Below are positions 41,341 through 46,853 of a stretch of 64,000 nt of DNA, in pieces. The stretch covers positions 3,844,001-3,908,000 of the forward strand of contig NC_019567.1 in the NCBI RefSeq assembly GCF_000317895.1, given 5' to 3'. The translations under genes were made by a program, and so were the position numbers. The notes under the pieces were generated by a model, which worked only from the letters and a program-made list of their open reading frames with translations, made no database searches and had not been told where the DNA came from. This DNA comes from Bdellovibrio bacteriovorus str. Tiberius. Lineage in GTDB: Bacteria > Bdellovibrionota > Bdellovibrionia > Bdellovibrionales > Bdellovibrionaceae. The first letter of the stretch is position 1. Every line of letters begins with the position of its first letter.

Positions 41341-42117
41341 TTAGAAAACGCGGGCTTTCACACCCTCTTGCTGGAAGAATTTCTTCAAAGCCGGACCATC
41401 CAGCGGTTCGAGCCTGAAAAGAAGCTTATGAACCAGTTCATAAGTCTCTTCCGCTTTCTTCGATCTCATTTTGTCTGTCAAATATGCCATGTCATCGCTG
41501 ATTTTGACCGCATTATCCAGCAGTCTGGCCATTTCTTTATTCTTCGTCGTTTTATCCAGCAGAACCAGCGTTTTATTGAAGTTTGTCGTCAAAGAATTCA
41601 GTTGTTGGATCATATTGGTCACCGAACCTTCGTTTTTTTCGACAAGTTCGATGATTTTGCCAGCCAAACCATAACCTTGAGAGATCAATTGATCCACACG
41701 CGGAGGATCTTCACCGCGAACATAATCACCGGATGAAAATTCACCGGAATCCACCGAGCCTGGAGAGATTTCCAGAAACTTTTCCCCAATCACACCGGCA
41801 AGATTAATGAAGAATTTGGAATCTTTCCGGACACTGGTCCAGGCTTTCTTATCAACTGTGATCGTCAGGCGCAGTTTCACCTCTTCGCCGGATGGAGCTT
41901 TGTATCCCGGATCAAAAGTGATCGCTTTCACTTTGCCCACTTTGATACCCATTACACGCACCGGAGAACCTTCTTCAATCCCGCCGGCATAGTTGTACAT
42001 GACATTAAGTTCTTTGGAATTGGAGAACGGGGAAATAAATCCCATGAAGTAGGCAAACACCACAATCAGAACTACCGAGACCAGAGCCAACAGGCCCACT
42101 TTGGTTTCAACCTTCAT
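41341..42117 (-). CDS. MCE-domain protein, MlaD-like
   Basis: The 258-residue product has one N-terminal membrane segment (GLLALVSVVLIVVFAYFMGF) and an MCE domain at about residues 35-115 (GIEEGSPVRVMGIKVGKVKAI). The C-terminal half is helical and contains repeated Leu and Asn positions, as in MlaD proteins. It binds lipid in the periplasm and sits on the permease complex. AGGGGAA precedes the ATG, eight bases after the permease stop. Confidence 0.92.
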   Translation of the reverse strand: MKVETKVGLLALVSVVLIVVFAYFMGFISPFSNSKELNVMYNYAGGIEEGSPVRVMGIKVGKVKAITFDPGYKAPSGEEVKLRLTITVDKKAWTSVRKDSKFFINLAGVIGEKFLEISPGSVDSGEFSSGDYVRGEDPPRVDQLISQGYGLAGKIIELVEKNEGSVTNMIQQLNSLTTNFNKTLVLLDKTTKNKEMARLLDNAVKISDDMAYLTDKMRSKKAEETYELVHKLLFRLEPLDGPALKKFFQQEGVKARVF

Positions 42118-42125
42118 ACGTTCCC

Positions 42126-42845
42126 CTAGTAAAGATAACTAAAAGTATAGGACAAAATAAAATCAATCACAATAATTGCGATCGAAGACACGACCACCGT
42201 GTTTGTTGTCGCACGACCCACGCCCTCGGCACCTTGCTGACAACGGAATCCAAAGTAACAAGCCACAAGAGGAATCACTCCTCCGAAGCACGCACCCTTG
42301 ATCATTGCAAAGATCAGATCCTTGAAATCCACAAACCGCTGCATGGAAGTCAGGAACATACCCGGTGTGTAACCCAAGTAAAACTGACTGACCGCCATTG
42401 CCGAGAATATACAAGCCATATTGGCGACAATCGTGATCATCATGCCGCCCAGAACACAGGCCAAAAAGCGTGGCACCACCAGGTAATTGACCGGATCAAT
42501 TCCCAGCATTTTCAGCGCATCCACCTGCTCGGTGATCTGCATGGAACCGACTTCAGAAGCGTATCCCGCCCCGACGCGGGAACTGAGCAGCAAAGCTGTG
42601 ACAATCGCCCCCAGTTCACGCAGGATTAAAACGGCAGCAAAGCCCGGCACCATCGAGTCATTCTGAATGACCATCTTCATATGGAAAGAGGACTCCAGGA
42701 TCGTGACAATCGCAGCAAAACACACACAAAAAACCACGATAAAAAGGCTTTTATTGCCCACAAAATGCAGCTGCTGGAAGAATTCCTTGCGACGAAACGG
42801 CGGTGTAAACACCCCGGTCAGGGTTTCAGCGATCAATGTGATCAT
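42126..42845 (-). CDS. MlaE-type ABC transporter permease (second copy)
   Basis: The 239-residue membrane protein has five to six hydrophobic segments and the MlaE-family motif region ELGAIVTALLLSSRVGAGYASEVGSM. It is one of two adjacent permease genes here; E. coli has a single MlaE homodimer. It overlaps its neighbour by four bases. Confidence 0.93.
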   Translation of the reverse strand: MITLIAETLTGVFTPPFRRKEFFQQLHFVGNKSLFIVVFCVCFAAIVTILESSFHMKMVIQNDSMVPGFAAVLILRELGAIVTALLLSSRVGAGYASEVGSMQITEQVDALKMLGIDPVNYLVVPRFLACVLGGMMITIVANMACIFSAMAVSQFYLGYTPGMFLTSMQRFVDFKDLIFAMIKGACFGGVIPLVACYFGFRCQQGAEGVGRATTNTVVVSSIAIIVIDFILSYTFSYLY

Positions 42846-43621
42846 GGTCTAAACCCCCGCACCATTGTAAGGATAATGTCCCCGATAAAGCTGGTCATCC
42901 AGTCCATCACCACAATACAAATCATCGTCGTCACGGCCGTTGCGACCACCGCACGGCCCACACCTTTGGCGCCTCCGGTTGTGGAATAGCCCTGATAAGT
43001 ACAAATAGTCGCCAGCACCACCGCGAAAGTACCGCACTTCACCAGGCCGCTTAAAATAGATACCGGACTGACAATCAACGGAACATGGCGCAGATATTCT
43101 TCATAGTTCACACCGGCAAACAGTTCGCCCAACAGCATTCCGCCAAAGACCGACATCATCAAGCCCGCTGCCAGCAGGAAGAAACTTGAAACAATAATAC
43201 CGACAAATCGCGGAACGATGATTTCCTGAATCGGATCCGCGCCCAGACAGCGAACGGCATCGATCTGTTCAGTGACCTTCATGGTCCCCAGCTCAGCCGA
43301 AGTGAACGCCCCGACTTTTCCGCTCAGCATGAAAGCGATCAACAGCGGGCCCACTTCCCTGAAAGTCGCACTGGTGGCCAATGCCCCCAGATATCCCAAA
43401 GCACCAAATTCTTTCACCTGCATCGCAAACTGTACGGTCATGATTGCGCCCACAAAGAAGCCCGCCATCGCCGTGGTCGGGAAACTGTCGACGGTGACTT
43501 TCCAGATCTGTTCAAAAATCTCGTGGACTTTAAGTTTCTTGAACATCATTGTGCGCAGGATTTTTTGCAGGAATAAAAGTGTGGATCCGACCTGATCCAA
43601 AAGGGATGTGATCATGGTCAT
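42842..43621 (-). CDS. MlaE-type ABC transporter permease (first copy)
   Basis: The 259-residue membrane protein has the same MlaE-type motif (GPLLIAFMLSGKVGAFTSAELGTM) and additional N-terminal residues. It overlaps the MlaF-like ATPase gene and the second permease by four bases each, so all three are translationally coupled. The two permeases probably form a heterodimer. Confidence 0.93.
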   Translation of the reverse strand: MTMITSLLDQVGSTLLFLQKILRTMMFKKLKVHEIFEQIWKVTVDSFPTTAMAGFFVGAIMTVQFAMQVKEFGALGYLGALATSATFREVGPLLIAFMLSGKVGAFTSAELGTMKVTEQIDAVRCLGADPIQEIIVPRFVGIIVSSFFLLAAGLMMSVFGGMLLGELFAGVNYEEYLRHVPLIVSPVSILSGLVKCGTFAVVLATICTYQGYSTTGGAKGVGRAVVATAVTTMICIVVMDWMTSFIGDIILTMVRGFRP

Positions 43622-44349
43622 GCCTCTAACACCTCGGCCAGGAAGTCTTTTACCAATGGCTGATCAGATTTCTTCAATTCATCGGGTGTGCCCAAAGCCA
43701 CGATGTTTCCCTTATCCAGAACGACAATGCGATCGGCAATGGAAAGTGCGCAGTTCATATCGTGGCTTACCACCAAAGAGGTTGTTTTCAATTCGCGGGA
43801 AAGATCCAGAATCAACTGATTCACCGCCGTGGTGGTGACAGGATCAAGACCTGTGGTGGGTTCGTCAAACAGCAGAATTCTTGGCTCTAATGCCACAGTT
43901 CTGGCAAGACTCACTCGCTTTTGCATTCCGTAGGAAATTTGTCCGGGACGTTTTTGTTCCACACCGTGCAAATTCACCAGGCGCAGGGCCTTTGAAACCT
44001 TGGCCTGAATGACTTCTTCAGACAGTTGATAATGACGACGAAGCCCGAAGGCCACATTTTCATAGATAGTCAGGGAATCAAACAAGGCGGGATGCTGAAA
44101 AACCATGCCACATTTTTTGCGGATCGGAAGATATTGTTCTTCGCTGAACTTTGAGACCTCTTCTTCATCAATCCAGATTTCTCCTTCATCCGGAGTCAGC
44201 AGACCCACGATGTTTTTCAGAAGAACGGATTTTCCTGTCCCAGATGTCCCCAGAATAAAGATGATCTCACCCTCGCGGATTTTTAGATTTAATCCGTTGA
44301 GTACTGTCCTTGTACCGAATCTTTTCACGAGGTTTTTGAACTCAATCAC
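43618..44349 (-). CDS. MlaF-type ABC transporter ATPase (catalytically canonical)
   Basis: The 243-residue ATPase has Walker A GTSGTGKS (residues 34-41), a Q-loop VFQHPALFDSL, signature SYGMQKR, Walker B ILLFDEPTTGLDP with catalytic Glu and the H-loop VVSHDMN. The catalytic residues are all present, unlike in the second ATPase at 46095. It is followed by the permeases, MCE protein and outer-membrane protein. Confidence 0.94.
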   Translation of the reverse strand: MIEFKNLVKRFGTRTVLNGLNLKIREGEIIFILGTSGTGKSVLLKNIVGLLTPDEGEIWIDEEEVSKFSEEQYLPIRKKCGMVFQHPALFDSLTIYENVAFGLRRHYQLSEEVIQAKVSKALRLVNLHGVEQKRPGQISYGMQKRVSLARTVALEPRILLFDEPTTGLDPVTTTAVNQLILDLSRELKTTSLVVSHDMNCALSIADRIVVLDKGNIVALGTPDELKKSDQPLVKDFLAEVLEA

Positions 44350-44524
44350 TTAGCTATGTTAGTTGGGCTGAAGTTCAGGGGTCAACCGCCATTTAAATTT
44401 CTGGATTCTTGGAGAAAGTCCACATTCCGAGACATTTAAACGCCCAAAATCAATTTACCCGCAAAACAGCTGAAAAAGGATCGGCACGATCATCGCTCAA
44501 AGGAATCCCTATAAAGGAAGCCCT

Positions 44525-45847
44525 ATGAAGATTAAACAAATGACAGTATCAATTTCTATCATTCTTTCATCTCTAACGACCCATGCATCTCCAAGCCTGT
44601 CAGATGCACCTATTTCCCAGGATAACACGGTAGAACATCAAAGAAATAGAGTGATTCAGAGGCTCGAAGTGCTCTTCCCTACTGCCGACCGCAGTATGGA
44701 GGCAACTCGCCTCTTTTCAATGGCACTTATCGCTTGGAATCCAAGGCTTAACCCTAATGATGCCGAAAGATTCTTATCCCACCGAGTTGACCGAATGGGA
44801 ATGATGAAAGGCTTGGTTGAACCACTACTCACGCTGATGGACGTCGCGCATGCCGCTGGGCGGCCCGAATTTACACGCATGCTGAATCCGGTATTACAGC
44901 TTGTTGCTCCAGGCCTAGCTAGAAATCTTCACGACAAGTATCAGTTACCATTAGATGAGCCAGGCAATGACTCTTTAAATATTTCACGAATGAACGACCT
45001 TGAACTGTTGAATTTTATGAAAAATAAGCTGGGTGGAAGCCGGCCCCATTCGCAAGAGAACGGGCAAGACATCCAAGCAAATGACGACTTTTTGCCTAAC
45101 GCTTTATTCGGAAAAAGTTCTTTTTATGGAGCCGCTATAGAACGCACTCGGGAAAGGAATGACGACTTCCGGGACGAACCGAGTTTGAATGGTGAATACG
45201 CCAAGGACCCACAGGCTGGATACAGTCCAAGAAACAACCGCGGAAACACCTCGACTCCCGGATCGAAAGCAAATCAAGACGAACAACCTCGCGGCCTCTT
45301 TTCCAGAATGGATTTAATGGCCTACTCGTCAAGCTGTGCAACGAAATGCGGAAGCGACATATTTTCTGGCGCGGCATCTGGAGCAGGATTGCCTGGACCT
45401 TGGTTTGTGAAAGTCACTGGCGTAGTTACGGGCGCGATCCTCGGGGGGCTCTCTTGCAAAGACTCCGCCGAATGCAACAAGGACAAAAAGAAAGACAATA
45501 CACCCAGCGAGCCGAAGGAACCTAAAAACCCTAAAGAACCCAAAGAACCAAAGCAACCCAAGGAGCCTAAAGACCCTCAGGAGCCGAAGGCACCAAAGGA
45601 ACCCAAAGAGCCTGAAGAACCAAAGGAGCCCAAGGATCCGAAAGAGCCTAAAGAATCGCCAACCAATGAAGGTTACAGAGGCAGAAGAGACGACGTAGAC
45701 AAAGGTGGCACCAAGTCTCCCGCAGGCAAAGGCACGGACAATATTCGAATTCGTCTCGACAAAGAATTTGAGACGAAAAGAAGTATTCCTGAAATTAATA
45801 AAGGTAATTTTGGCAGAATCTCAACGCCCACTAGAAGGAACGACTAA
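44525..45847 (+). CDS. secreted protein with Cys/Gly-rich hydrophobic core and Lys-Glu-Pro repeats
   Basis: The 440-residue product has a signal peptide ending at TTHA (about residue 22). Residues about 25-260 are hydrophilic and unrecognised. Residues 271-317 hold four cysteines (271, 275, 311, 317) around a Gly-rich hydrophobic stretch that includes FVKVTGVVTGAILGGLSC. Residues 327-378 are a tandem (K/E)-P-(K/E) tripeptide repeat, with codons varying synonymously. No family is recognised. AAAGGAAG precedes the ATG. It sits on the plus strand inside a minus-strand lipid transport locus. A bacteriocin-like or adhesive role is speculation. Confidence 0.75.
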   Translation: MKIKQMTVSISIILSSLTTHASPSLSDAPISQDNTVEHQRNRVIQRLEVLFPTADRSMEATRLFSMALIAWNPRLNPNDAERFLSHRVDRMGMMKGLVEPLLTLMDVAHAAGRPEFTRMLNPVLQLVAPGLARNLHDKYQLPLDEPGNDSLNISRMNDLELLNFMKNKLGGSRPHSQENGQDIQANDDFLPNALFGKSSFYGAAIERTRERNDDFRDEPSLNGEYAKDPQAGYSPRNNRGNTSTPGSKANQDEQPRGLFSRMDLMAYSSSCATKCGSDIFSGAASGAGLPGPWFVKVTGVVTGAILGGLSCKDSAECNKDKKKDNTPSEPKEPKNPKEPKEPKQPKEPKDPQEPKAPKEPKEPEEPKEPKDPKEPKESPTNEGYRGRRDDVDKGGTKSPAGKGTDNIRIRLDKEFETKRSIPEINKGNFGRISTPTRRND

Positions 45848-46098
45848 TGAAGACACTTTCTCGTACATTACACTGGTGGATACATCCAGTATTAGTCATT
45901 TTGACCATGGCAGTTCCTCCGGAATCAAGAACTGCCGTGAGTCTTGCAGTAAGCTTGGTTGCTCTTGGAACTCAGCCTCTTACGAAGGCAGACATGCTTT
46001 CGATGAATCGCAGAGACAAAATTGGCAGCTGGGTCGTTACAGGAGTAATTATTGGAATTATCTCCGGACTTACTTACCTGCAATTTTTCACAACCTAG
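45847..46098 (+). CDS. small membrane protein coupled to the repeat protein
   Basis: The 83-residue product has two hydrophobic segments (about 13-45 and 60-80) joined by a short basic loop. The ATG overlaps the stop of the preceding gene by one base (TAATG), so translation is coupled. Its stop shares CTAG with the convergent ATPase. No family is recognised; an immunity, anchoring or export partner role for the upstream protein is speculation. Confidence 0.7.
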   Translation: MKTLSRTLHWWIHPVLVILTMAVPPESRTAVSLAVSLVALGTQPLTKADMLSMNRRDKIGSWVVTGVIIGIISGLTYLQFFTT

Positions 46099-46853
46099 AC
46101 GTTAGCTGTGGTGAGTGGACCTGCAAGCAATCCGCGAATGAACTGATGCACGCGTGGATCAGCGTGATTTTTGGTTTCTTCAGGTGTTCCGGTGATAAGC
46201 AGTTCCTGATCAACCACCATGCCGATTCGATCCGCCATTTGAAACGCACGATTCATGTCGTTGGTGATCGCAACAACTGTCGATCTCTTTTCTTTTTTCA
46301 GCGTCATGATCAGATCGATGATTTTGCGTGAAGTGATGGGATCCAAGCCTGCCGTTGGATCATCATAGAAAATGATCTCGGGATCCAGAGCTAATGCTCG
46401 AGCGATTCCCAGGCGTTTTTGCATGCCGCCGCTGATTTCATCCGGATATAAATCACGGGCATGAGGAATGCCGACCGCATCCAAGAAATACTCTGCTTTT
46501 TTTGTTATTTCCCAGTCTGAAAGACCTGTGGTTTCACGCAGCGGGAAGCTGATATTTTGAACACATGTCAGCGAATCAAAAAGTGCGTTTTTCTGAAACA
46601 GAATTCCGACTTTTTTAAGCAGCGGAAGACGCTCTTTGTTGCTCAGCGTCGACCAGTCCATTTGTTCAACAAATACTTTGCCATTACGGGGACTTACCAA
46701 CCCTGCCATGGCTTTTAACAAGGTCGTTTTTCCCTGCCCGCTGGGACCCACAATCACAAATGATTCGCCCGCCTGAATTTCCAAATTGATGGACTTCAGC
46801 ACAACAAGATCTTCAAAGGCCACTGTCACGTCTTTCAGACTGATGATGCTCAT
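46095..46853 (-). CDS. MlaF-type ABC transporter ATPase, degenerate site
   Basis: The 252-residue ATPase has Walker A GPSGQGKT (residues 36-43) and signature SGGMQKR. Its Walker B reads IIFYDDPTAGLDP, so the catalytic Glu position is Asp. The H-loop reads AITNDMN, with Asn in place of His. It is probably the noncanonical half of an asymmetric transporter with the ATPase at 43618. It is separated from the rest of the locus by two plus-strand genes. No strong ribosome binding site is seen. Confidence 0.88.
   Translation of the reverse strand: MSIISLKDVTVAFEDLVVLKSINLEIQAGESFVIVGPSGQGKTTLLKAMAGLVSPRNGKVFVEQMDWSTLSNKERLPLLKKVGILFQKNALFDSLTCVQNISFPLRETTGLSDWEITKKAEYFLDAVGIPHARDLYPDEISGGMQKRLGIARALALDPEIIFYDDPTAGLDPITSRKIIDLIMTLKKEKRSTVVAITNDMNRAFQMADRIGMVVDQELLITGTPEETKNHADPRVHQFIRGLLAGPLTTANV

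What the first reader, a model, noticed from the sequence alone, without database searches (positions are those of the whole stretch)
44350..46100. Two-gene secreted-repeat cassette inside the Mla-type lipid transport locus
Seen: a plus-strand pair (44525 and 45847, coupled by TAATG) sits between two minus-strand ABC ATPase genes of one lipid transport locus. The first protein has a signal peptide, a four-cysteine Gly-rich hydrophobic core (271-317) and a 52-residue Lys-Glu-Pro tripeptide repeat (327-378). The second is an 83-residue protein with two membrane segments. Neither matches a family I know. The orientation and position suggest insertion into an older operon. A secreted effector or bacteriocin with a membrane partner is speculation.
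Basis: partly seen in the sequence, partly recalled or inferred. Interest (0 to 1): 0.62.

Follow-up and report, generated by a model that had tools for sequence, protein, structure and literature searches.

The report
Mobile secreted-protein/membrane-partner gene pair, Bdellovibrio
A predatory bacterium has acquired a two-gene unit, one gene for a secreted protein with a membrane-seeking glycine-rich hairpin and one for a tiny membrane protein; related pairs sit at different chromosomal sites in other Bdellovibrio species, which suggests a toxin with its protector but does not prove it.

Summary
Genes 44525-45847 (440 aa, P1) and 45847-46098 (83 aa, P2) lie between two Mla-type ATPase genes. 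The pair is an acquired insertion: the slot is 24-100 bp in 12 other Bdellovibrio genomes, including the two closest, and P1 has the most atypical codon use among 56 long window ORFs.

New result: the pair belongs to an unnamed two-gene family. P1 relatives share an invariant core, C-x3-C ... GxxxGxxxG ... C-x5-C, behind a signal-like N-terminus. They occur in 8 of 24 Bdellovibrio genomes and one other genus (10 loci in 369 phylum genomes). In Bdellovibrio a membrane-protein gene always follows directly. Sites differ: three carriers' sites are empty in the window genome. In two carriers a 45-bp direct repeat of the smpB 3' end flanks the pair. Partners fall into three apparently unrelated classes, one tandemly duplicated.

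Best explanation (0.45): a membrane-inserting, bacteriocin-like effector with its immunity protein, working like Cdz or class II bacteriocins but a member of neither. Main rival: a trans-envelope complex. The slot is permissive, because in this genus the downstream ATPase gene has its own conserved promoter-like sequence. No activity has been shown.

The parts
44525..45847 (+). P1: 440-aa secreted protein
   Evidence: ORF; 38% identical relative in G019; family core in 10 loci
44525..44587 (+). Sec-type signal sequence of P1, residues 1-21 (cut near THA|SPS)
   Evidence: sequence; hydrophobic N-termini also in relatives; no signal-peptide predictor available
44630..45034 (+). helical N-terminal region, residues about 36-170, with conserved RVDRMGMMKGLVEP-like stretch
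   Evidence: alignment A3; low-confidence helices in model
45335..45475 (+). family core, residues 271-317: C-x3-C, glycine zipper G299-x3-G303-x3-G307, C-x5-C
   Evidence: C271, C275, G299, G307, C311, C317 invariant in 10 sequences, G303 in at least 90%; model suggests helices 270-287 and 293-312 at low confidence
45503..45658 (+). Lys-Glu-Pro triplet linker, residues 327-378
   Evidence: replaced by charged K/E/Q-rich stretches or nearly absent in relatives
45251..45259 (+). first STP short motif (NTSTP), residues 243-245
45821..45829 (+). second STP short motif (RISTP) near the C-terminus, residues 433-435
   Evidence: 10 STP in five long members against 0.63 expected in shuffles
45847..46098 (+). 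P2: 83-aa basic membrane protein with three hydrophobic segments, 1-nt overlap with P1
   Evidence: weak relation to partners in G006, G005, G023
44389..46094 (.). acquired segment (approximate limits)
   Evidence: homology with G015 ends at 44388, with G005 at 44350; right side resumes at 46092 in G005
44356..44385 (-). promoter-like sequence of the downstream ATPase: TTGACC-18-TAACAT, next to the GTG start
   Evidence: TTGAC at -34 to -37 in 21 of 21 Bdellovibrio genomes read
43618..44349 (-). Mla-type ATPase 1 (left flank)
   Evidence: PF00005 E 4e-36; MlaF model E 8e-61, below its cut-off
46095..46853 (-). Mla-type ATPase 2 (right flank); its stop codon overlaps the P2 stop
   Evidence: PF00005 E 9e-32; matches in 83 of 119 relatives at E 1e-60
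42126..43621 (-). two MlaE-type permease genes (42842-43621 and 42126-42845)
   Evidence: PF02405
41341..42117 (-). MlaD/MCE-domain protein
   Evidence: PF02470 E 6e-18

Best explanation
The pair is one member of an accessory family of secreted effector plus immunity-like membrane protein in Bdellovibrio. P1 is exported by Sec; its cysteines probably form two disulfides that staple a Gly-zipper helical hairpin. That hairpin would insert into a target cell's membrane and damage it, with the linker and N-terminal region serving reach or targeting. P2, made from the same coupled transcript, sits in the producer's inner membrane and neutralises P1. Targets would be rival Bdellovibrio or prey. Shown: signal-like N-terminus, invariant core, coupling, changing sites, differing and in one case duplicated partners, insertion relative to close relatives. 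Inferred: disulfides, membrane insertion, toxicity, immunity, delivery route.
For: Core invariant across 10 members, with GxxxGxxxG between paired cysteines. Every Bdellovibrio member is followed directly by a membrane-protein gene, from a 1-nt overlap to 19 nt apart. Partners fall in three apparently unrelated classes and were found in the genus only next to a P1 gene. G002 has two tandem partner copies (55% identical), and G100 two tandem P1 copies. Patchy: 8 of 24 genomes in the genus; empty sites in both directions. Core is a sub-threshold match to PF10439 class II bacteriocins in four members. The organisation resembles Cdz: Gly-zipper toxins and a 3-TM inner-membrane immunity protein (PMC5380434). 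P1 core and C-terminus are mosaic between G005 and G023: dS 1.42 and 1.01 against 0.15-0.35 in neighbours.
Against: No toxicity data. No exporter gene beside it and no double-glycine leader. P2 of G005 and G023 is 98.9% identical although their P1 cores differ, which is not expected if P2 recognises the variable core. No orphan immunity genes were found. PF10439 matches are all below its cut-off and could reflect Gly-rich composition. Structure models have low confidence (pLDDT 40.7 and 39.2). The tandem partner duplication is a single case.
Confidence: 0.45

Rival explanations
1. Trans-envelope tether: P1 and P2 form a complex in the producer's own envelope. The hairpin sits in one membrane, the long linker crosses the periplasm (as in TonB/TolA), and P2 anchors it in the inner membrane, altering the envelope during predation.
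For: Strict coupling and co-occurrence of P1 and P2; long KEP or charged linker in long members; P2 conserved while P1 varies in G005/G023.
Against: Linker nearly absent in G005, G006, G023 members; present in only a third of the genus, at changing sites; unrelated partner classes serve similar P1 proteins.
Confidence: 0.22
2. Prey-interaction protein: P1 is a surface or secreted adhesin or prey-envelope modifier that diversifies with prey range; P2 helps its membrane passage or anchoring.
For: Signal-like N-terminus, low-complexity linkers, repeated STP motif, mosaic evolution, restriction to a mostly predatory group.
Against: No adhesin or enzyme domain found; 16 of 24 genomes in the genus lack it.
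Confidence: 0.18
3. Low-function cargo: an acquired pair that is kept by chance in a permissive intergenic slot, with no selected role at present.
For: The slot holds different genes in other species; atypical codon use.
Against: Purifying selection on the G005/G023 pair (dN/dS 0.12 and 0.08); invariant core across distant members.
Confidence: 0.1

Closest known systems
Cdz system of Caulobacter crescentus (CdzC/CdzD, CdzI; PMC5380434)
   Same: Secreted proteins with GxxxGxxxG motifs next to a small protein with three predicted membrane segments and no obvious sequence relatives; resembles class II bacteriocins only weakly.
   Different: Cdz toxins are 84-86 aa, two per system, exported by adjacent type I genes cdzAB. 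P1-family proteins are 224-653 aa with a Sec-like signal and four paired cysteines, and no exporter was seen beside them.
Class II bacteriocins (PF10439)
   Same: Gly-rich hydrophobic zipper segment; matches P1 residues 270-308 at E 0.0036.
   Different: Score 17.7 against cut-off 27.1; no double-glycine leader; far larger protein.
Polymorphic toxin-immunity systems, e.g. SitA toxins of myxobacteria (PMC5562445, PMC3482391; abstracts only)
   Same: Patchy, diversified secreted protein followed by a partner gene; tandem partner copies in G002.
   Different: Here the conserved part is the central core, not an N-terminal trafficking domain with exchangeable C-terminal toxins.
Ankyrin-mediated self-protection in Bdellovibrio (PMC4686830; abstract only)
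   Same: A Bdellovibrio prey-directed activity paired with self-protection.
   Different: Peptidoglycan enzymes and an ankyrin-type protector there; no sequence relation claimed or tested.

Membership tests
Class II bacteriocin PF10439 | Pfam gathering score 27.1 | tested here: not met
   17.7 bits for P1; 14.2-15.2 in three relatives
Class II bacteriocin PF10439 | double-glycine leader peptide | tested here: not met
   P1 begins with a Sec-like signal sequence; the match covers profile positions 19-57 inside the protein
Class II bacteriocin PF10439 | antibacterial activity | not testable with these tools
   needs bench work
Cdz | glycine zipper GxxxGxxxG | tested here: met
   G299, G303, G307; conserved in the family
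Cdz | adjacent type I secretion genes cdzAB | tested here: not met
   neighbours are Mla genes; none noticed by eye beside the fetched relatives
Cdz | two small toxin proteins under 100 aa | tested here: not met
   one protein of 440 aa
Cdz | small 3-TM immunity protein in the inner membrane | tested here: inconclusive
   three hydrophobic segments; location and immunity untested
Polymorphic toxin-immunity system | conserved trafficking domain with variable C-terminal toxin domain | tested here: not met
   conserved part is the central core
Polymorphic toxin-immunity system | immunity-like gene directly downstream, sometimes duplicated | tested here: inconclusive
   partner always downstream in Bdellovibrio members, tandem in G002; immunity untested
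Mla lipid transport system | pair conserved with the mla genes | tested here: not met
   absent from the slot in the other genomes examined

The most novel reading that the evidence does not exclude
An undescribed family of Sec-exported, disulfide-stapled Gly-zipper membrane toxins with exchangeable membrane immunity proteins moves between chromosomal sites of predatory Bdellovibrio and decides which predators tolerate each other, for instance when two enter one prey cell.
Probability: 0.25. Interest if true: 0.8.

Novelty: new variant of a known kind. Interest (0 to 1): 0.52.

Why it matters
No bacteriocin-like or kin-discrimination toxin of Bdellovibrio turned up in the papers searched (open-access only, titles and abstracts read). 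If the pair is one, it gives a direct test of predator-predator conflict and of how a periplasmic predator protects itself. The G005 genome, whose size is that of the model strain HD100 (from memory), carries a member, so the test needs only laboratory strains.

Tried and rejected
KEP-repeat relatives (GBS BAC protein, SrfA, Streptomyces and others) rejected as low-complexity matches. Phages, plasmids and viral contigs: no relative. Solved structures: none. PADLOC: none. AlphaFold of P1 and of the short G005 member: low confidence, so no fold search was run. Flanking direct repeats at the window insertion: none convincing. Orphan partner genes in the genus: none. Matches in G047, G139, G087, G102, G080 rejected as generic Gly-rich segments lacking the cysteine core. 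HD100 locus tags guessed from the coordinate gave no relevant paper. Genomes held are one per species, so within-species gain and loss could not be examined.

Full report
The window lies at 3,844,001-3,908,000 of a 3,988,594-bp single-contig genome. Flanking genes on the minus strand encode two ABC ATPases, two MlaE permeases and one MlaD protein.

Is it an insertion? In the two closest genomes, G005 and G023 (ATPase 2 at 97% identity), the gap between the ATPase genes is 49 and 78 bp, and it is 24-100 bp in 12 of 21 Bdellovibrio genomes where both genes could be read. The window carries 1,745 bp there. DNA homology ends at the ATPase 1 start (G005) or 38 bp beyond it (G015) and resumes at the ATPase 2 stop. 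P1 has a codon score below all 55 other long ORFs of the window (-0.131; mean 0.122, sd 0.063) and P2 has the lowest GC3. Some of those 55 ORFs may not be genes, which if anything makes the comparison conservative. No convincing flanking repeat marks the window insertion.

The slot is permissive. Other species carry unrelated genes there: by my reading of the translations a glyoxalase-like protein, a small membrane protein, a TetR-like regulator, a PolX-like protein and others (not tested by profile). In all 21 Bdellovibrio genomes read, ATPase 1 starts with GTG and has TTGAC at -34 to -37; none of the six genomes of other genera read has it at that place, and in five of those six the two ATPase genes abut or nearly abut. 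So in this genus the downstream genes appear to have their own promoter and tolerate insertions upstream of it. The promoter is a consensus match, not a measured start.

A family. P1 has a near full-length relative in G019 (38%). A profile of the core (A2, A5) finds ten loci in nine of 369 genomes of the phylum: eight of 24 Bdellovibrio genomes, and G100 of another family with two tandem copies (an eleventh match, G047, lacks the cysteine core). Six positions of the core are invariant in all ten across both alignments, four of them cysteines. Signal-like N-termini are present. The linker after the core differs: Lys-Glu-Pro in the window, Pro-rich in G019, charged K/E/Q-rich in G017, G020 and G002, nearly absent in G005, G006, G023. 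Five long members share a repeated [ST]STP-type motif, 10 STP against 0.63 expected.

The partner. In every Bdellovibrio member a membrane-protein gene follows, from a 1-nt overlap to 19 nt apart. Small proteins with two or three clear hydrophobic segments follow P1 in the window, G005, G006, G023 and G019; a 227-229-aa protein follows in G017 and G020; two tandem 119-121-aa proteins follow in G002. In G100 an 83-aa protein follows one copy, which appears frameshifted, and none was recognised after the other. Homology between small partners is weak (shuffle z 2.8 for window-G006, 5.9 for G006-G005). Profiles of the three classes find no copy away from P1 in the genus, so the orphan-immunity signature is absent.

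Movement. The G005 pair sits after smpB, flanked by a 45-bp direct repeat of the smpB end (98% identical; 100% in G023); the window genome has one copy and no pair there. The G006 site is 198 bp in the window genome against about 3.0 kb, and the G019 site 26 bp against about 4.3 kb, so those inserts hold neighbouring genes too. Conversely G005, G023 and G019 are empty at the window slot, whereas G006 has other genes there. The repeat suggests site-specific integration; no integrase is encoded, and the mechanism is unknown.

Evolution. Between G005 and G023, P1 has dN/dS 0.12 but dS rises from 0.40 in the helical part to 1.42 in the linker-core part, while neighbours have 0.15-0.35 and P2 0.06. 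This indicates recombination within P1. It is mixed evidence for toxin-immunity, since P2 did not change with the core.

Mechanism. A Gly-zipper segment between cysteine pairs fits a stapled hydrophobic hairpin; both low-confidence models give two consecutive helices there. Together with the coupled basic membrane partner this resembles Cdz (PMC5380434). The explanation is an inference from organisation; membership in Cdz, class II bacteriocins or polymorphic toxins fails on tested features. I give 0.45 to effector-immunity, 0.22 to an envelope complex, 0.18 to a prey-interaction protein and 0.10 to low-function cargo.

Noticed in passing
41341-46853: The Mla locus has two different MlaE permeases and two different ATPases with a single MlaD protein, suggesting heteromeric rather than homodimeric transporter subunits.
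   Followed up: no
44356-44385: Conserved TTGACC...TAxxAT promoter-like sequence ends about 7 nt before the GTG start of ATPase 1 in all 21 Bdellovibrio genomes read, suggesting leaderless mRNA.
   Followed up: partly
L080 5806-7035: 45-bp direct repeat of the smpB 3' end flanks a 1.2-kb insert without integrase gene; the insert ends in a terminator-like hairpin.
   Followed up: partly
L034-L041, L050, L052, L053: The inter-ATPase slot holds different unrelated genes in other Bdellovibrio and relatives: a recurrent cargo site.
   Followed up: partly
L079 7629-8651: An HNH-endonuclease-like gene (by eye) adjoins the G006 pair inside the same insert.
   Followed up: no
L078 4840-6651 and L085 2750-3712: Papain-like peptidase-type proteins (by eye) lie next to the G019 pair and to one G100 copy.
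   Followed up: no
L085 7103-8846: One of the two tandem G100 copies seems frameshifted: its C-terminal end lies in a separate overlapping ORF.
   Followed up: no
L017 1-1910: A G018 protein with very long Asn-Gly-Asn and Thr-rich repeats.
   Followed up: no
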